A stretch of DNA of 53,207 nucleotides from Candidatus Endomicrobium procryptotermitis (GTDB lineage Bacteria > Elusimicrobiota > Endomicrobiia > Endomicrobiales > Endomicrobiaceae): positions 1 through 53,207 of the forward strand of contig JAITIP010000013.1 of NCBI GenBank assembly GCA_031279415.1. The letters are read 5' to 3'. Positions within the stretch are counted from its first letter, which is position 1. Each line of letters begins with the position of its first letter. Under the pieces are notes generated by a model, which ran no database searches, had not been told where the DNA came from, and was given only the letters and a program-made list of their open reading frames with translations. Positions 850 through 8,826 of the stretch are shown here, one piece after another. Both the position numbers and the translations under genes were made by a program.

Positions 850-879
850 TTGACAACTGTTAATTTTATTTTGTAACAT
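850..879 (+). promoter_or_regulatory. Putative promoter of the trp operon
   Basis: A perfect -35 hexamer TTGACA (850-855) is followed after 18 bp by TAACAT (874-879), a 4/6 match to the -10 consensus. The start would fall near 886, about 35 bases before the first paired strand of the T-box leader. That position is what a T-box-controlled transcript needs. Assignment is by sequence only. Confidence 0.55.
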
Positions 880-914
880 TATCAAATAACTTAATAGGGA
901 CAATGTCCCAAAAA

Positions 915-1220
915 CCGTTGATGTGGAGATAACGGTAATTGTGCAGTTACAGAGAGCGGGCGCAGCTGAGATTCCCGTACAACGCAGATTATCAAATGGA
1001 CCACAGAGGGCGCGGTCAAAGAAAGCGAAAGCTTTTTAGTATTCCGCGACGTAACGTGTACGTTAATTACGAGGAATATTCCGAAACGTTTTGTTTCCAG
1101 TATTCTACAAAGAGTGCGGCAACGGCAAATTATAGTCGTTTTTCCGCAAAGCAAGGTGGCACCGCGGATAAATTCAAATCCGTCCTTGACATAATATTTT
1201 ATGTTTTGGACGGATTTTTT
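915..1220 (+). promoter_or_regulatory. T-box leader (tRNA-Trp-sensing riboswitch) of the trp operon
   Basis: Stem I is closed by TGTGG (922-926) with CCACA (1001-1005). An upper helix follows, GGTAAT (934-939) with the ATTATC at 988-993, and the internal loop between them carries the specifier codon TGG (997-999, Trp) followed by A. AGAGAG (951-956) and a cggg/cccg helix (957-960 with 974-977) enclosing GCTGAGA form the distal part. The T-box core GGTGGCACCGCGG is at 1155-1167. Its TGGC would pair with the GCCA 3' end expected for bacterial tRNA-Trp, whose discriminator is G. A competing terminator follows. Specifier, discriminator match and the trpE gene downstream all agree. Known T-box biology predicts that uncharged tRNA-Trp permits read-through into trpE. 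Confidence 0.92.
1176..1220 (+). terminator. T-box-controlled terminator before trpE
   Basis: AAATCCGTCC (1176-1185) pairs perfectly with GGACGGATTT (1208-1217), ending in a T-run to 1220. It begins eight bases after the T-box core, the standard position of the terminator that competes with the tRNA-stabilised antiterminator. Confidence 0.88.
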
Positions 1221-1343: not shown

Positions 1344-2804
1344 ATGCTAAAACCTTCAATTGAAGAAGTTAAACGATATATTAAAGATTACAATGCGTTT
1401 CCAGTATATAAAGAAATTTTTTCTGATATTAAAACGTCGGTTGGAATTCTTAGAAATTTTATGGAAGAAAATAAGAAATGTTATCTGCTTGAAAGCGTCG
1501 AAAGCACAGAAAACTGGGGACGCTATTCGTTTTTAGGCTGTGATCCTAAACTTACGATTAAATGTAATGATGGCAAAATCGTTGTTGATGATGGAAAGCG
1601 GTGCGAAATTGAGACTTTGAAACCTGAAACTGTGCTCAGAGATATTTTGTCGCGTTACAGAAGTCCGCAGATAAAATCTCTGCCGCCTTTTACGGGAGGG
1701 CTGGTGGGTTATTTTTCTTATGACTATATAAAATATATCGAAAAATCTTTAAAGCTTGACAATATAAATGCTGAAAATTTTGATGATTTGTATCTTATGC
1801 TTTTCGATAAAGTTATTGCTATAGATCATCTTAAACAGAAGATTTTTATAATAGTGAACGTCTTGACAGATAATTTTGAAACAAATTATGCAAATGCCGA
1901 AACTGAGATAGAACGGCTGGAACGGTTGATAAAAAAAGAGTCTGGCAGTGTCGATGCAAAATCCGAACTCAAAACTGATTTAAGAATTCTTCACAACAAA
2001 GAAGAATTCTGCAAAATGGTAAGCGAAATAAAACGGCATATATATGAAGGAGACATTTTTCAGGCAGTAATATCTAACGGCATAGAGGGTGACTTCAATG
2101 GGACCCTTTTTGAAACTTATAGAGTTTTAAGAACGGTAAATCCGTCGCCTTACATGTTTTACTGCAATTTCGGCGATTCTGAAATTGCCGGCGCTTCGCC
2201 GGAAACACTTATAACTCTAAAAGACAGCGAACTTACTAATTATGCTCTTGCAGGAACCTGTAAACGCGGCAAAACCATTGAAGAAGACGAACAGCTCACA
2301 GCAGACTTGCTCAAAGATGAAAAAGAGCTTTCAGAACATAATATGCTTGTGGATTTGGGACGAAACGATTTGGGAAAAGTAAGCGAATTCGGCAGTGTTA
2401 AAGTTGTGGAATATATGAAGATATTAAAATTTTCGCATGTTTCGCATATAGCTTCGATAATCAAAGGAAAACTAAAAACTGGTTATGACCAGTTTGACGC
2501 CGTATCCGCTGTGCTTCCTGCCGGAACGCTTTCGGGGACGCCTAAAATTAAAGCATGCGAAATAATCAATTCCCTTGAAAAACACAAACGCGGAACTTAT
2601 GGAGGCGCCGTTGGATATATTGATTTTACCGGAAATATGGATATGTGTATAGCCATAAGAATGGCAAAACTGCAAAATGGAAAAATTTATATACAGGCTG
2701 GAGCCGGCATTGTCGCTGAAAGTGATCCTGAAAAAGAGTTTCAGGAATGTTTAAATAAAGCGCAGGCGATGATTGAAGCGCTGCAAACCGCTTCTGGAAA
2801 TTGA
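1344..2804 (+). CDS. trpE: Anthranilate synthase component I
   Basis: It converts chorismate and ammonia, or glutamine nitrogen supplied by TrpG, to anthranilate: the first committed step to tryptophan. The 486-residue protein has the usual length. The LLES feedback-inhibition element is at residues 48-51, followed by GRYSF. The chorismate-binding domain shows NPSPYMFY, GASPETL, LAGTCKRG, HNMLVDLGRNDLG, LPAGTLSGTPK and GAGIVAESDPEKE in order. The start at 1344 is preferred because GGGAGG lies just before it; the in-frame ATG at 1332 overlaps that ribosome site. It is the first gene after the Trp T-box leader, and its end is followed 28 bp later by trpG. The LLES motif suggests the enzyme is also inhibited by tryptophan. 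Confidence 0.97.
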   Translation: MLKPSIEEVKRYIKDYNAFPVYKEIFSDIKTSVGILRNFMEENKKCYLLESVESTENWGRYSFLGCDPKLTIKCNDGKIVVDDGKRCEIETLKPETVLRDILSRYRSPQIKSLPPFTGGLVGYFSYDYIKYIEKSLKLDNINAENFDDLYLMLFDKVIAIDHLKQKIFIIVNVLTDNFETNYANAETEIERLERLIKKESGSVDAKSELKTDLRILHNKEEFCKMVSEIKRHIYEGDIFQAVISNGIEGDFNGTLFETYRVLRTVNPSPYMFYCNFGDSEIAGASPETLITLKDSELTNYALAGTCKRGKTIEEDEQLTADLLKDEKELSEHNMLVDLGRNDLGKVSEFGSVKVVEYMKILKFSHVSHIASIIKGKLKTGYDQFDAVSAVLPAGTLSGTPKIKACEIINSLEKHKRGTYGGAVGYIDFTGNMDMCIAIRMAKLQNGKIYIQAGAGIVAESDPEKEFQECLNKAQAMIEALQTASGN

Positions 2805-2832: not shown

Positions 2833-3444
2833 ATGATTTTAATAATAGATAATTATGACAGTTTCTCTTATAACCTTTACCAGTACGTAGGAATAATAAA
2901 TGACGATGTTAAAGTGATAAAAAACGATGAGATGACGATTGAAGAAATGGAAAAATTAAATGTTTCACATCTTATTTTTTCGCCCGGGCCGGGACGTCCG
3001 TCAGATGCGGGCCGTAGCGAAGAAGCGATACTTTATTTTAAAGACAAAAAACCGATACTCGGCATTTGTCTTGGACATCAGGCGATATGCGAAGTTTTCG
3101 GCGCAAAAATTACTTATGCAAAAACTCTTTTTCACGGAAAAACAAGCAATGTACAGATAGCGAACGGCAGTCCGATTTTTAAAGGACTGCCGCCGGTATT
3201 AAAAACCGCCAGATACCACTCTTTAATTGCCGACAGAGCAACGCTTTCGGATGAACTGCTTGTTATAGCTGAAGATGAAGAAGGGCAGGTTATGGGCGTA
3301 AAGCACTGTGATTATAATTTGTACGGACTTCAGTTTCATCCTGAATCCGTGCTTACGCAGAAAGGAATGACCATAATAGAAAATTTTTTAAATCTTGAAA
3401 GGGGAGGCAGCAGTGATACGGGAATCAATATACGAAATAGTTAA
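2833..3444 (+). CDS. trpG: Anthranilate synthase component II (glutamine amidotransferase)
   Basis: A class I glutamine amidotransferase that releases ammonia from glutamine for TrpE. The 203-residue protein starts with MILIIDNYDSFSYNL, typical for this family. The nucleophile is Cys79 in GICLGHQ; the other two triad members are His169 and Glu171 in QFHPES. The oxyanion region PGPGRP is at 51-56. The start at 2833 is set by GGAGG eight bases upstream; an earlier in-frame ATG at 2773 lies inside trpE and would add a non-homologous tail. Its end overlaps the start of trpD by 32 bp, suggesting translational coupling. The protein is not fused to trpD, unlike in enterobacteria. PabA function is possible as well, since some bacteria share one subunit. 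Confidence 0.95.
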   Translation: MILIIDNYDSFSYNLYQYVGIINDDVKVIKNDEMTIEEMEKLNVSHLIFSPGPGRPSDAGRSEEAILYFKDKKPILGICLGHQAICEVFGAKITYAKTLFHGKTSNVQIANGSPIFKGLPPVLKTARYHSLIADRATLSDELLVIAEDEEGQVMGVKHCDYNLYGLQFHPESVLTQKGMTIIENFLNLERGGSSDTGINIRNS

Positions 3445-4429
3445 CAGACAGAATCTTTCAATAGAAAATACTAAAATGGTTATGAATGAAATTATGGACG
3501 GCAAAGCCACAGATGCTCAGATTGCTTCTTTTTTAACGTCGATGAGGCTCAAAGGGGAAACTATAGAAGAAATAACTGCATGTGCAATGGTTATGAGAGA
3601 AAAATGCCAGAGACTTAACCCGAAAACCGACGTGTTGGATATTGTTGGCACGGGGGGAGACGAACTTGCGACGTTCAATATTTCTACTGTTTCATCTTTT
3701 ATAATCGCGGCCGCCGGCGTGCCAGTAGCCAAGCATGGCAACAGAAGTGTATCAAGCAAATGCGGAAGTGCGGATTTACTTGAAGCTTTGGGAGCAAACA
3801 TAATGCTTGCTCCGACGCAATGCGATTTTGTGCTTGAAAAAACTGGAATATGTTTTCTTATGGCACAGACTTTTCATTCCTCGATGAAATATGTGGCAAA
3901 AGTGAGAAAAGAACTGGGGATAAGAACCATATTTAATATTTTAGGTCCGCTGGCAAATCCCGCCAAAGCAAAATACGAACTTATAGGTGTGTACGATGAA
4001 AATCTTGTTGAACCTATGGCGAGGGTGCTGGCAAATCTCGGTGTCAAAAGAGCTATGGTAGTACATGGCCACGATGGGCTTGATGAAGTTACGCTCTCAG
4101 ATACCACAACAATATGTGAAGTAAACGATGGAAAATTAAACAGCTTTTTTATAACTCCGGAACAGTTTGGGCTTCAAAGATGTTCTCTTTACGAACTGAT
4201 AGGTGGAAGTCCGCAGGAAAATAAAGAGATAGCACTGAATATTTTGAAAGGCGAAACAGGTGCAAAAAGAGATATAGTTCTGCTAAATTCTGCAATATGC
4301 CTTTATATGTTTTACAATAATGTAACTCTTAAAGAATGTTTAAAAATTGCGCGGGAGATGATTGACAGCGGCAAAGCGTTAAATAAACTTGAAGAGTTTA
4401 TAAAAGTGTCTAATGAGGCGGCAAAATGA
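3413..4429 (+). CDS. trpD: Anthranilate phosphoribosyltransferase
   Basis: It joins anthranilate to PRPP to give phosphoribosylanthranilate. The product has 338 residues from the GTG start at 3413, which is preceded by GGGGAGG; the upstream TTG at 3395 has no spacing for a ribosome site. The glycine-rich PRPP loop GTGGD is at 79-83, followed by STVSSF and the KHGNRSVSS block at 107-115. NILGPLANPA and the metal-binding HDGLDE also match the family. It overlaps trpG by 32 bp and its stop overlaps the start of trpC (ATGA), so all three are probably translated from one message. Confidence 0.97.
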   Translation: MIRESIYEIVNRQNLSIENTKMVMNEIMDGKATDAQIASFLTSMRLKGETIEEITACAMVMREKCQRLNPKTDVLDIVGTGGDELATFNISTVSSFIIAAAGVPVAKHGNRSVSSKCGSADLLEALGANIMLAPTQCDFVLEKTGICFLMAQTFHSSMKYVAKVRKELGIRTIFNILGPLANPAKAKYELIGVYDENLVEPMARVLANLGVKRAMVVHGHDGLDEVTLSDTTTICEVNDGKLNSFFITPEQFGLQRCSLYELIGGSPQENKEIALNILKGETGAKRDIVLLNSAICLYMFYNNVTLKECLKIAREMIDSGKALNKLEEFIKVSNEAAK

Positions 4430-5226
4430 TATTGGATAAAATCGTTGCGGCAGCAAAAGTAAGAATTGAAAAGTCAAAAGAAAAAAAATCTCTTGAAGAG
4501 GCAAGAAAAGAGGCCATCTCGGTTTCAAAAGATGGGAATTTCTCTTTTGAAAAAGCGCTTAAAAAAGAAGAAATAAGCTTTATATGCGAAATAAAAAAAG
4601 CGTCTCCGTCAAAAGGAATTATTTCACATGATTTTAGATATTTGGAAACGGCAAAAGAGTATGAAGCAGCAGGTGCGGATGCAGTTTCTGTTATTACCGA
4701 ACCTGACTTTTTTATGGGTTGCGATAGGTATCTTACGGAAATTAAAAACACTGTAAGAATACCGGTATTAAAAAAAGATTTCATAATAGACGTTTACCAG
4801 ATTTTTGAAGCAAAAAATACCGGCGCCGACGCAGTACTTTTGATATGCACAATACTTAGTTTTGAAGATTTAAAAGAGTTCATGGAAACTGCTCATGCTT
4901 TGGGATTATCATGTCTTGTTGAAACGCATGATGAAAAAGAAGTTGAAATGGCGCTTAAAGCCGGTGCAAAAATAATAGGCGTTAACAACAGAAATCTTAA
5001 AACTTTCGAAGTGGATATAAATAACAGCGCAAAATTGAGAAAACTTGTATCGCAGGACAAAATATTCGTTTCAGAAAGTGGAATAAGAACAAAAGAAGAT
5101 ATAGATGCTCTGCGTTTGCACAAAATTGATGCTGTTTTGATAGGCGAAGAACTTATGAAAAGTACAAACGTAAAGCAAAGGCTTAAAGAATTGAAAAGCA
5201 TATGGAGGAAAAATGACGAAAATTAA
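4426..5226 (+). CDS. trpC: Indole-3-glycerol-phosphate synthase
   Basis: It closes the pyrrole ring, turning carboxyphenylamino-deoxyribulose phosphate into indole-glycerol phosphate. The 266-residue (beta/alpha)8 barrel shows EIKKASPSKG at 55-64 with the catalytic lysines, then VLKKDFI, GADAVLLI, LVETHDEKE, GVNNRNLKTF and VSESGI at the ends of successive strands. It is a separate enzyme, not the enterobacterial TrpC-TrpF fusion. It starts inside the stop codon of trpD and overlaps trpF by 14 bp. Confidence 0.97.
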   Translation: MILDKIVAAAKVRIEKSKEKKSLEEARKEAISVSKDGNFSFEKALKKEEISFICEIKKASPSKGIISHDFRYLETAKEYEAAGADAVSVITEPDFFMGCDRYLTEIKNTVRIPVLKKDFIIDVYQIFEAKNTGADAVLLICTILSFEDLKEFMETAHALGLSCLVETHDEKEVEMALKAGAKIIGVNNRNLKTFEVDINNSAKLRKLVSQDKIFVSESGIRTKEDIDALRLHKIDAVLIGEELMKSTNVKQRLKELKSIWRKNDEN

Positions 5227-5815
5227 AATATGCGGTTTAAAAAGAGAAGAAGACATAAAATATGCCAATGAAACAAAACCGGATTACATAGGATTTGTTT
5301 TTGCCGGAGAAAAAAGGAAAATAACTTTTGAAAACGCAGCAGAACTTAAAACAATGCTTGACAAAAAGATAAAGTCCGTTGGTGTTTTTGTAAATGAAAA
5401 AATAGACAATATAATAAATCTTTCTGCTGAAGGAATAATTGATTTAATACAGCTGCACGGCGGTGAAGATGAAGCATATATTTACAGGTTGAAAGAAAAA
5501 ACTGATAAACCTGTGATAAAAGCGATAAGAGTGAAAGAAAAAATGCATAATTTTAACACGGCGGCAGATTTTGCACTTTTTGATGCCTATACGGAAAATG
5601 AATACGGCGGAAGCGGAAAATCTTTTGATACAGAACTGATTAAAGAATACGACCATCCTTTTTTTATAGCTGGCGGAATAAATGTCGGAAACGTTGAAAC
5701 GGTAATAAAAGAGTTAAATCCGTTCTGCGTTGATTTAAGCAGCGGAGTTGAAAGCGGCGGCGTCAAAGATTTAAATAAAATCAGGGAAATTGTCAAAACC
5801 GTAAGGAGCTTGTGA
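5213..5815 (+). CDS. trpF: Phosphoribosylanthranilate isomerase
   Basis: It performs the Amadori rearrangement of phosphoribosylanthranilate. The 200-residue barrel begins MTKIKICGLKREED with catalytic Cys7. The general acid is Asp124 in ALFDAY. The phosphate-binding ends FIAGGINVGNV and DLSSGVESGGVKD are present. The length is typical. A ribosome site GGAGG lies inside the trpC end, with 14 bp of coding overlap. A gap of 61 bp to trpB follows. Confidence 0.96.
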   Translation: MTKIKICGLKREEDIKYANETKPDYIGFVFAGEKRKITFENAAELKTMLDKKIKSVGVFVNEKIDNIINLSAEGIIDLIQLHGGEDEAYIYRLKEKTDKPVIKAIRVKEKMHNFNTAADFALFDAYTENEYGGSGKSFDTELIKEYDHPFFIAGGINVGNVETVIKELNPFCVDLSSGVESGGVKDLNKIREIVKTVRSL

Positions 5816-5876: not shown

Positions 5877-7061
5877 ATGTCTAAATGGAAATTCGGAGTG
5901 TATGGTGGATGTTACATACCGGAAACACTTATGAATGCCGTAAAAGAGCTGGATGAAGCTTACAATCATTATAAAAACGATAGAGATTTTAATTCTGAAC
6001 TAAACGCATTATTAAACGAGTATGCCGGCAGACCGTCAAGATTGTACTATGCAAAAAATATGACGGAAAAACTCGGCGGGGCAAAGATCTATCTTAAAAG
6101 GGAAGATTTGAATCACACGGGTTCCCATAAAATAAACAATGTTCTCGGACAGACGCTTCTTGCCAAAAAGATGGGTAAAAAGAGAGTGATTGCCGAAACT
6201 GGAGCAGGACAGCATGGCGTGGCAACTGTAACCGCTGCAGCTTTGCTCGGCATGGAATGTGAAATATTTATGGGTGAAGAAGATATTGAAAGACAGTCGT
6301 TAAACGTTTTCAGAATGAAACTGCTGGGTGCAAAAGTTAATCCTGTAAAAAGCGGCACAAAAACTTTAAAAGATGCAGTAAGCGAAACCATGAGAGAATG
6401 GTCACGCAGAGTTGAAGATACTCTTTATGTTTTAGGTTCAGTTATGGGACCGCACCCGTTTCCAAAAATTGTGAGAGATTTTCAAAGTGTTATAGGCAAA
6501 GAGATAAAAGAACAGATTTTGCAAAAAGAAGGAAAATTTCCCGACATTGTAATGGCATGCGTTGGCGGCGGCTCAAATGCTATGGGAACTTTTTATGATT
6601 TTTTAAACGATAAAAACGTAAAACTTATAGGCTGTGAAGCCGCGGGGAAAGGAATTGACACCCCAGAAACGGCCGCAACCATAGCAACTGGCCGTCAGGG
6701 AATATTTCACGGAATGAAATCTTATTTCTGCCAGACGGAAAGCGGACAGGTTGCCCCAGTTTATTCGATTTCTGCAGGGCTTGACTATCCAGGAATAGGA
6801 CCCGAACACGCTTATCTTCATGATATAAAAAGGGCGCACTACGTTTGCGTAACAGATGTGCAGGCGGTTGAAGCTTTTGAATTTTTATCACTTACCGAAG
6901 GAATAATTCCCGCTGTGGAATCTGCGCACGCGGTTTATCATGCGATGCAGATTGCTCCGAAAATGAAAAAAGATGAAATAATTGTCGTGACTCTTTCGGG
7001 AAGGGGAGATAAAGACGTTGCCATGATAGCGAGATATAAAGGAGAAAATATATATGAATAG
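5877..7061 (+). CDS. trpB: Tryptophan synthase beta subunit
   Basis: A PLP enzyme that condenses indole with serine to give tryptophan. The 394-residue protein has the PLP lysine Lys85 in HTGSHKINN, the catalytic Glu107 in ETGAGQHG, the phosphate loop GGGSNAMG, and the C-terminal LSGRGDKD that contacts the pyridine ring. It is a TrpB1-type sequence fitting the TrpA-associated form. The ribosome site GGGAG lies nine bases before the ATG. It overlaps trpA by 8 bp, as expected for subunits made in equal amounts. Confidence 0.98.
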
Positions 7062-7839
7062 AGTCGGAAATGAAATTTCAAAAGTGTTTGATAATAAAAA
7101 AGCGCTGATAACATATTTAACTGCCGGTGACCCATCTCTTGAAAGCAGCGAAGAATTCATAGTTGTGCTTGCTAAGAACGGAGCCGATTTGATAGAAATA
7201 GGTATTCCTTTTTCCGACCCAATAGCTGAAGGTGAAGTTATACAAAACGCTATGAAAAGAGCGTTGTCAAAAAAAATAAATTTGGATGATGTCTTCAATA
7301 TGGTCGTAAGGATAAGAAAGAGAACCGATATTCCTCTAACTTTTATGACTTATTTAAATCCGTTGCTTACATACGGCTATGATAATTTTTTTAAGAAATG
7401 TAAAGAAACAGGAATAAGTGCGATAATAGCTCCCGATATGCCTTTTGAAGAACAAGATGAAGTGAAAGAGTTTGCAGACAAATACGATATAACCATAATA
7501 ACTCTTATAGCGCCGACTTCAAATGAAAGAATAGAAAATATTGCAAAATCTTCAAAAGGTTTTATATATCTTATTTCTTCATTGGGAGTTACGGGAGTAA
7601 GAACAAAGATAGCGACAGATATAGGTTGGCTGGTATCGAAAATAAAAAAAGTTACTGATATTCCGGTCGCCGTAGGTTTCGGTATAGCTTCGGGATGGCA
7701 GGCAAAAGAGATTGTAAAATATGCTGATGGAGTGATAATAGGAAGCGCAATTGTAAAAATAATTGCCGAATATAAAGAAAATGCTGCGCCGAAACTTGCC
7801 GAATATATATTATCCATAAGAAAAGAAATGGAAATTTGA
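7054..7839 (+). CDS. trpA: Tryptophan synthase alpha subunit
   Basis: It cleaves indole-glycerol phosphate and passes indole to TrpB through the intersubunit tunnel. The 261-residue barrel has YLTAGDPS, the catalytic Glu48 in [11 protein letters not shown], loop 6 [10 protein letters not shown] and the phosphate site GFGIAS. An oddity: the second catalytic acid, Asp60 in Salmonella (LADGP), aligns with Glu59 here (IAEGE). This keeps a carboxylate, but the residue is strongly conserved as Asp in the family. The reading frame is otherwise normal and closely coupled to trpB. Confidence 0.96.
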
Positions 7840-7908
7840 AATAGATTTGATATAATTAATAAACATATATATTTGATATGAAAATTTTTGCTTCAAGGAG
7901 TTTCCGCC

Positions 7909-8826
7909 ATGCCGATAAAAATACCTAAAGATTTGCCGGCACGTAAAATTTTAAACGAAGAAAACATATTTATTATGGATGAAAGCCGTGCAATGACGCA
8001 GGATATACGTCCTTTAAAAATAGCGATACTTAACCTGATGCCTAAAAAAATAGAAACGGAAACCCAGCTTTTGCGGCTCATAGGAAACACCCCTTTACAG
8101 GTTGACATAGAACTGCTGCAGACGGCAAGCCATCAATCGACAAACACCCCTGCCGAACATCTGCTGAAATTTTACCGCACTTTTGGCGATGTGAAAAACA
8201 AGCATTTTGACGGATTGATTATAACGGGCGCTCCTGTCGAAATGCTAGAATTCGAAGAAGTCGACTACTGGCAGGAACTTTGTGAAATTATGGAATGGTC
8301 AAAGACGAACGCTTTTTCAACTTTTCATATTTGCTGGGGATCTCAGGCGGCACTGTACTATCATTACGGAATAAAAAAACATACGCTGGATAAAAAAATG
8401 TTTGGTATTTTTCTTCATGAGCAGACTGCCAAAGGGCATTATCTTTTAGATGGGTTTGATGACGCTTTTTATGCTCCACATTCGCGTCATACCGGCATAG
8501 ACGAAAAAGCCGTTGAACAAGATAACAGGCTTTTAGTTCTGAGCCGTTCAAAAGAAGCCGGAATATATATCGCCTGCAGCAGAGATTCAAAGCAATTTTT
8601 TATTACTGGACATTCTGAATATGACAGAGATACTCTTGCGAACGAATATTTCAGGGATTTGGAAAAAGGGCTGCAAATAGAAAAACCCATAAACTATTTT
8701 CTCGAAAATAATACTAAAAACAAGGCTCTTATAAAATGGAGAGCCCATGCAAACCTTTTATTTTATAATTGGCTTAACTATTTCGTATACCAGCGTACCC
8801 CGTATGACTATGTCGAGAAGGACTAA
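7909..8826 (+). CDS. metA: Homoserine O-acyltransferase, probably O-acetyltransferase
   Basis: It activates homoserine for methionine synthesis. The protein has 305 residues starting [11 protein letters not shown]. The start at 7909 follows AAGGAG at a good distance, and an in-frame TTG at 7888 is rejected. The catalytic triad falls at the standard numbers: Cys142 (HICWG), His235 and Glu237 (TGHSEYD). Residue 111 is Glu (GAPVE). In characterised MetA-family enzymes Glu111 goes with acetyl-CoA and Gly111 with succinyl-CoA, so I infer an acetyltransferase. It lies 69 bp after trpA with no clear terminator between. A TATAAT at 7851-7856 could be a -10 box, but no good -35 accompanies it, so co-transcription with trp is possible. 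Confidence 0.95.

What the first reader, a model, noticed from the sequence alone, without database searches (positions are those of the whole stretch)
915..1220. Tryptophan T-box riboswitch outside the usual lineages
Stem I, TGG specifier, T-box with a C matched to the tRNA-Trp discriminator G, and a terminator are all readable. T-boxes are best known from Firmicutes and Actinobacteria, with scattered cases elsewhere. If the organism is an Elusimicrobiota member this is a useful outlier, and points to transfer or wider ancestry.
Basis: partly seen in the sequence, partly recalled or inferred. Interest (0 to 1): 0.6.

Follow-up and report, generated by a model that had tools for sequence, protein, structure and literature searches.

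The report
Tryptophan T-box in an Endomicrobium
A tRNA-sensing RNA switch of the kind best known from Firmicutes precedes the tryptophan operon in Endomicrobium, a genus of gut bacteria in a phylum for which I found no published T-box; the switch and its genes appear to have come together from Clostridia-type bacteria, probably twice.

Summary
Confirmed. Window 909-1190 is a full-length T-box leader (Rfam RF00230, 85.2 bits, E 7.5e-19). It lies under Rfam's 93-bit gathering score, but so do all nine clostridial and coriobacterial trp T-boxes scored for comparison (66-92 bits). It has Stem I, specifier UGG, T-box bulge UGGCACC, and an antiterminator that excludes a strong terminator. The genome's own tRNA-Trp has G73, facing the C. 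It precedes trpEGDCFBA. Stem I covaries strongly among relatives.

It is no lone outlier: 38 genomes of its family carry a trp-type T-box, while 25 trpE genes sampled from other families of the phylum have none upstream.

Transfer is favoured over ancestry. TrpE and TrpD of this family fall among Clostridia-type operons, many with the same T-box, and away from other Elusimicrobiota; one origin for the phylum's genes is rejected (AU p 2e-45 and 2e-5). Two acquisitions within the family look likely (p 0.025 for TrpE, 9e-5 for TrpD). In two endosymbiont-type relatives the T-box is decaying beside a retained trpE. The mechanism is textbook; the phylum, linked transfer and decay are new. No wet-lab evidence exists.

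The parts
850..879 (+). Promoter-like site TTGACA-18-TAACAT, a candidate start for the leader
   Evidence: Consensus scan, 10 of 12 matches; the number of such sites in the region is no more than chance (3 found, 3.6 expected), so position only
915..1009 (+). Stem I of the T-box (basal CC/GG, 923-926 with 1001-1004, 934-939 with 988-993, AG bulge about 951-955, distal stem and loop about 956-978)
   Evidence: Rfam alignment; covariation
997..999 (+). Specifier codon TGG (Trp) in the specifier loop AAATGGA
   Evidence: Rfam register; invariant in 31 aligned Endomicrobiaceae trp T-boxes
1011..1048 (+). Stem II (CGCGG / CCGCG) with an AGTA internal-loop motif
   Evidence: Rfam alignment; sequence
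1049..1065 (+). Short hairpin after Stem II in the position of the Stem IIA/B element (ACGT / ACGT)
   Evidence: Rfam alignment; pseudoknot not tested
1115..1148 (+). Stem III (TGCGG / CCGCA)
   Evidence: Rfam alignment; sequence
1157..1163 (+). T-box bulge TGGCACC; TGGC (1157-1160) is complementary to GCCA, discriminator G73 plus CCA, of tRNA-Trp
   Evidence: tRNA-Trp in L111 ends ...TGCCCCC-G
1152..1188 (+). Antiterminator: 1152-1156 with 1184-1188, 1164-1169 with 1178-1183
   Evidence: Minimum-energy fold of 1150-1191, -11.3 kcal/mol; 98% of cells paired in relatives
1176..1220 (+). Intrinsic terminator: AAATCCGTCC (1176-1185) with GGACGGATTT (1208-1217), then a U-run; shares 1178-1185 with the antiterminator
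   Evidence: Fold -22.3 kcal/mol, z -7.8; more stable than the antiterminator in 46 of 50 related leaders
1344..2804 (+). trpE (anthranilate synthase I); start at 1344 preferred over 1332, GGGAGG at 1334-1339
2833..3444 (+). trpG
3410..4429 (+). trpD
   Evidence: exact start not settled
4426..5226 (+). trpC
5213..5815 (+). trpF
5877..7061 (+). trpB
7054..7839 (+). trpA

Best explanation
This is a class I (transcription-attenuating) T-box riboswitch specific for tRNA-Trp, controlling the trpEGDCFBA operon of an Endomicrobium. When tryptophan is scarce, uncharged tRNA-Trp (anticodon CCA) pairs with the specifier UGG in Stem I, and its 3' end GCCA pairs with UGGC in the T-box bulge. That stabilises the antiterminator, so the polymerase reads into trpE. 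When the tRNA is charged the bulge is not engaged, the more stable terminator at 1176-1217 forms, and transcription stops. Shown from sequence: the elements, their mutual exclusion, the match to this genome's own tRNA-Trp, and conservation with covariation. Inferred from the well-studied family: tRNA binding and switching. Evolution: T-box and operon were most likely acquired together from Clostridia-type bacteria, probably in two events within Endomicrobiaceae (inference from trees).
For: Full-length RF00230 match, E 7.5e-19. Specifier TGG, T-box C and tRNA-Trp G73 agree. Antiterminator and terminator are mutually exclusive and well folded. trp operon downstream. Strong Stem I covariation. 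38 family genomes with trp-type T-boxes, including one single-contig genome (G294). Near-identical trp T-boxes upstream of clostridial trpE. TrpE and TrpD trees put the family with Clostridia-type genes; phylum monophyly rejected, p 2.4e-45 and 1.9e-5. One origin in the family rejected at p 0.025 (TrpE) and 9e-5 (TrpD).
Against: Score is under Rfam's gathering cut-off, though so are clostridial trp T-boxes. No promoter shown beyond chance. The RNA fold of Stem I alone does not recover the T-box structure and is no more stable than shuffles, so the Stem I structure rests on homology and covariation. The two-acquisition claim rests on quick trees with groups chosen after seeing the TrpE tree, and p 0.025 for TrpE is modest. 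Donor sampling came from one scan biased towards sequences like the query; the direction of transfer for group A relative to termite-gut Oscillospiraceae is not resolved.
Confidence: 0.9

Rival explanations
1. Wider ancestry: the T-box and trp operon descend vertically from a common ancestor of Elusimicrobiota and Firmicutes and were lost in the rest of the phylum.
For: The T-box is present across many genera of one family; PMC3766115 lists ancestry as one of two proposed scenarios.
Against: TrpE and TrpD of other Elusimicrobiota form separate groups, and one clade for the phylum is rejected (p 2.4e-45; p 1.9e-5). 25 other-family trpE loci have no T-box motif upstream.
Confidence: 0.04
2. Contamination or misbinning: a Firmicutes contig binned into an Elusimicrobiota genome.
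For: The window comes from a 46-contig assembly, and the genes look Clostridia-like.
Against: The same T-box-trpE arrangement occurs in 38 genomes of the family, including a single-contig genome G294 and a four-contig genome G290. The nearest relatives by far (83% TrpE, 92% TrpD) are named Endomicrobium.
Confidence: 0.01
3. A decayed relic: the leader looks like a T-box but no longer regulates.
For: Relatives G284 and G276 keep trpE but have visibly degraded leaders.
Against: In this genome every element is intact and matched to its own tRNA-Trp, and the structure is kept by covariation in relatives.
Confidence: 0.03
4. Transfer in the opposite direction for group A: termite-gut Oscillospiraceae and Family XIII received the operon from Endomicrobiaceae.
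For: Group A TrpE and TrpD lie next to termite-gut Oscillospiraceae and a Family XIII genome, and these share a habitat.
Against: The trp T-box operons of the wider clade are spread over many Firmicutes and Coriobacteriia families, while the rest of Elusimicrobiota lacks them.
Confidence: 0.1

Closest known systems
T-box leader, Rfam RF00230, class I transcriptional, tRNA-Trp type upstream of trpE in Clostridia and Coriobacteriia (for example Anaerovorax odorimutans L044, Desulfosporosinus L047)
   Same: Same full-length architecture, specifier TGG, bulge UGGNACC, terminator, gene controlled, and long stretches of shared sequence
   Different: Host phylum only; minor sequence differences
Scattered T-boxes outside the main phyla: Dehalococcoides trpE (Chloroflexi), Deinococcus, Geobacter and Pelobacter leuA (PMC2494555; PMC3766115)
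   Same: T-boxes in phyla where the class is rare; Dehalococcoides also has it at trpE
   Different: Those lists do not include Elusimicrobiota; here the trait spans a family and was acquired with the operon
HisR-regulated his operon of Elusimicrobium minutum (PMC9413887)
   Same: Amino-acid biosynthesis regulation in the same phylum of a type shared with Firmicutes
   Different: A DNA-binding repressor, not an RNA switch; another amino acid

Membership tests
T-box leader (RF00230), class I transcriptional | Covariance-model match over the whole leader | tested here: met
   Model 1-219, E 7.5e-19; 85.2 bits is under the 93-bit gathering score, as are comparable clostridial trp T-boxes
T-box leader (RF00230), class I transcriptional | Stem I with specifier loop codon matching the regulated pathway | tested here: met
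   TGG at 997-999, trp operon downstream; invariant in relatives
T-box leader (RF00230), class I transcriptional | T-box bulge UGGN with N complementary to the discriminator of the cognate tRNA | tested here: met
   UGGC against G73 of the genome's own tRNA-Trp
T-box leader (RF00230), class I transcriptional | Antiterminator competing with an intrinsic terminator | tested here: met
   Folds of 1150-1191 and 1167-1222 share 1178-1185
T-box leader (RF00230), class I transcriptional | Conserved secondary structure supported by covariation | tested here: met
   Stem I; the antiterminator is largely invariant
T-box leader (RF00230), class I transcriptional | Stem IIA/B pseudoknot and distal-loop contact with the tRNA elbow | tested here: inconclusive
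   The corresponding regions align to the model, but the pseudoknot and tertiary contact were not tested, and the distal loop GCUGAGA differs from the Rfam consensus
T-box leader (RF00230), class I transcriptional | Read-through dependent on uncharged cognate tRNA | not testable with these tools
   Needs an experiment
Class II (translational) T-box | Sequestrator covering the ribosome-binding site in place of a terminator | tested here: not met
   A strong terminator with a U-run precedes trpE

The most novel reading that the evidence does not exclude
Endomicrobiaceae acquired complete tRNA-Trp T-box plus trp operon cassettes from gut Clostridia-type bacteria on at least two separate occasions, and the switch is then lost before the enzymes in flagellate endosymbionts, giving a natural series from gain to decay of a riboswitch.
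Probability: 0.6. Interest if true: 0.5.

Novelty: new member of a known kind. Interest (0 to 1): 0.42.

Why it matters
Earlier surveys limit T-boxes to Firmicutes, Actinobacteria, Chloroflexi, Deinococcus-Thermus and a few Deltaproteobacteria and leave transfer versus common ancestry open (PMC3766115). This case adds Elusimicrobiota and gives direct tree evidence for transfer of switch and operon together. It also shows that Rfam's gathering score misses the trp subtype, so default genome annotation will under-report it. The decay of the leader beside a retained trpE bears on whether endosymbionts make aromatic amino acids for their flagellate hosts, a capacity reported as not conserved across Endomicrobiellum (PMC11257099).

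Tried and rejected
A second T-box in this genome: only an 18-bit match at G000:C42, taken as chance. The weak G326 match (25.5 bits) did not recur at E 0.01 and was dropped. The Vitreschak 2008 T-box survey is not held, so its taxon list could not be checked. Folding Stem I alone gave no T-box-like structure; structure evidence was taken from covariation instead. MAFFT misregistered the specifier-proximal helix between the two groups, so it was counted by script at fixed offsets and left out. The first run of pair counting failed on string length. In the first TrpD phylum test one Endomicrobium row (L071) was mislabelled as a named outsider; it was put right for the family test. Part of the T-box 5S rRNA transcript: unlikely, since a strong terminator at 465-506 separates them, but no promoter was shown.

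Full report
OBSERVATION. The region was re-read and searched against Rfam. Window 909-1190 on the + strand is a complete T-box leader (85.2 bits, E 7.5e-19, model positions 1-219 of 219). It does not reach Rfam's gathering score of 93 and is therefore absent from a default scan of the window. To see whether that matters, nine loci with clostridial or coriobacterial trpE were scored: their T-boxes gave 66.5 to 92.3 bits, none over 93. The shortfall is a property of this trp subtype and does not count against the identification.

ANATOMY. Stem I runs 915-1009. The specifier codon in the Rfam register is UGG (997-999). The T-box bulge is UGGCACC (1157-1163) inside an antiterminator (1152-1188) that is the minimum-energy fold of that segment. 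The terminator 1176-1217 with its U-run folds at -22.3 kcal/mol (z -7.8) and uses part of the same strand (1178-1185), so the two exclude each other. Stem I folded alone does not give the T-box structure and is no more stable than shuffles, which is why covariation was used. The genome's tRNA-Trp lies on another contig (G000:C18, read in L111): anticodon CCA, acceptor GGGGGCA/TGCCCCC, discriminator G, CCA not encoded. In some relatives the bulge is UGGU; three of those were checked and also have G73, so a G-U pair would be used.

CONTEXT. The leader is followed by trpE, G, D, C, F, B, A in one direction, then a metA-type gene. The 3' end of 23S rRNA and a 5S rRNA lie upstream, closed by a strong terminator at 465-506. 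A promoter-like site at 850-879 is well placed, but such sites are no more frequent than chance.

CONSERVATION. Of 341 genomes of the phylum, 42 have an RF00230 match at E 0.001: 39 in the window's own family, two in a distant family and one weak hit. One of the 39 (G253) is a Tyr-type T-box, leaving 38 with a trp-type. In the 31 Endomicrobiaceae trp T-boxes aligned the TGG is invariant; G302, with a shortened Stem II region, also has it. Sixteen Stem I pairs counted over 30 distinct sequences are 99.4% paired, with two-sided changes at nine pairs and no shuffle as high; sliding the partners drops pairing to at most 53%. The specifier-proximal helix, scored by script over 50 sequences including Clostridia, is paired in 269 of 300 cells against a shuffle maximum of 225. 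The antiterminator is 98% paired but mostly invariant, so it offers little covariation. The terminator is predicted more stable than the antiterminator in 46 of 50 leaders.

ORGANISM. NCBI places that record in Elusimicrobiota, Endomicrobiia. rRNA placement was not done directly.

TRANSFER OR ANCESTRY. Upstream of trpE in Anaerovorax, Desulfosporosinus, Oscillospiraceae, Lachnospiraceae, Family XIII, Veillonellaceae, Erysipelotrichaceae and Coriobacteriia lie trp T-boxes of the same subtype, alike over long stretches. TrpE of other Elusimicrobiota is at most 45% identical to this one, less than the 57% of Anaerovorax, and 25 such loci have no T-box motif within 500 bases upstream. In the TrpE tree Endomicrobiaceae sit inside the group that holds the T-box-bearing operons (99% support) and apart from the other Elusimicrobiota; holding the phylum together costs 270 log units (p 2.4e-45). 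TrpD agrees (p 1.9e-5). Within the family there are two groups: A (including this genome, near termite-gut Oscillospiraceae and Family XIII) and B (genera g10, g12, g13). One origin is rejected at p 0.025 for TrpE and 9e-5 for TrpD. Leaders of B form one clade (97/99) in a T-box tree whose deep branches are unresolved. I infer at least one, probably two, transfers of switch plus operon. The direction for group A is inferred from the wider clade, not proven.

DECAY. Of the Endomicrobiaceae with trpE but no T-box hit, G284 and G276 show degraded leaders, G267 has a divergent bulge cut off by a contig end, and G303 has an unrelated upstream region. This fits genome erosion in that group (PMC11257099).

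LITERATURE. Searches of the held library for T-box with Elusimicrob or Endomicrob found no report of T-boxes in this phylum: the hits were a histidine-regulation paper and an unrelated termite transcriptome paper. PMC2494555 and PMC3766115 give the earlier phylum lists. Absence from this library is not proof that nobody has noted it.

VERDICT. The extension to a new phylum, with evidence of linked transfer and later decay, is worthwhile but makes this a new member of a known kind.

Noticed in passing
window 10028-42943 +: An open reading frame of 10,971 codons, with SecA-like and large glycosyltransferase-like stretches by eye; remarkable size for a bacterium.
   Followed up: no
L132, L113, L133, L135 (G313, G314, G315, G311); G317: A second, higher-scoring T-box (up to 132 bits) upstream of ilvB-ilvN-ilvC in genus g13, specifier GUC or GUA (Val); in G311 Stem I is shortened and the codon reads UUC.
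   Followed up: partly
L123, L125 (G103, G104): T-box upstream of thrS in a distant family (f16) of the same phylum, bulge UGGA, specifier probably ACC (Thr), so T-boxes entered Elusimicrobiota more than once.
   Followed up: partly
L127 (G253), 2766-2999 -: Tyr-type T-box (UAC) with a poor antiterminator, upstream of a short remnant of a beta-eliminating lyase (tyrosine phenol-lyase or tryptophanase family).
   Followed up: partly
L041 (G284), L042 (G276): Degraded trp T-box leaders upstream of intact trpE in endosymbiont-type genomes.
   Followed up: partly
L009 and L208 (G292): Mosaic operon: T-box and TrpD group with group A relatives, but TrpE is only 56% identical and falls outside them, as if trpE alone had been replaced behind the T-box.
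   Followed up: partly
window 7888-8826 +: A metA-type gene follows trpA by about 50 bases and may be read with the trp operon.
   Followed up: no
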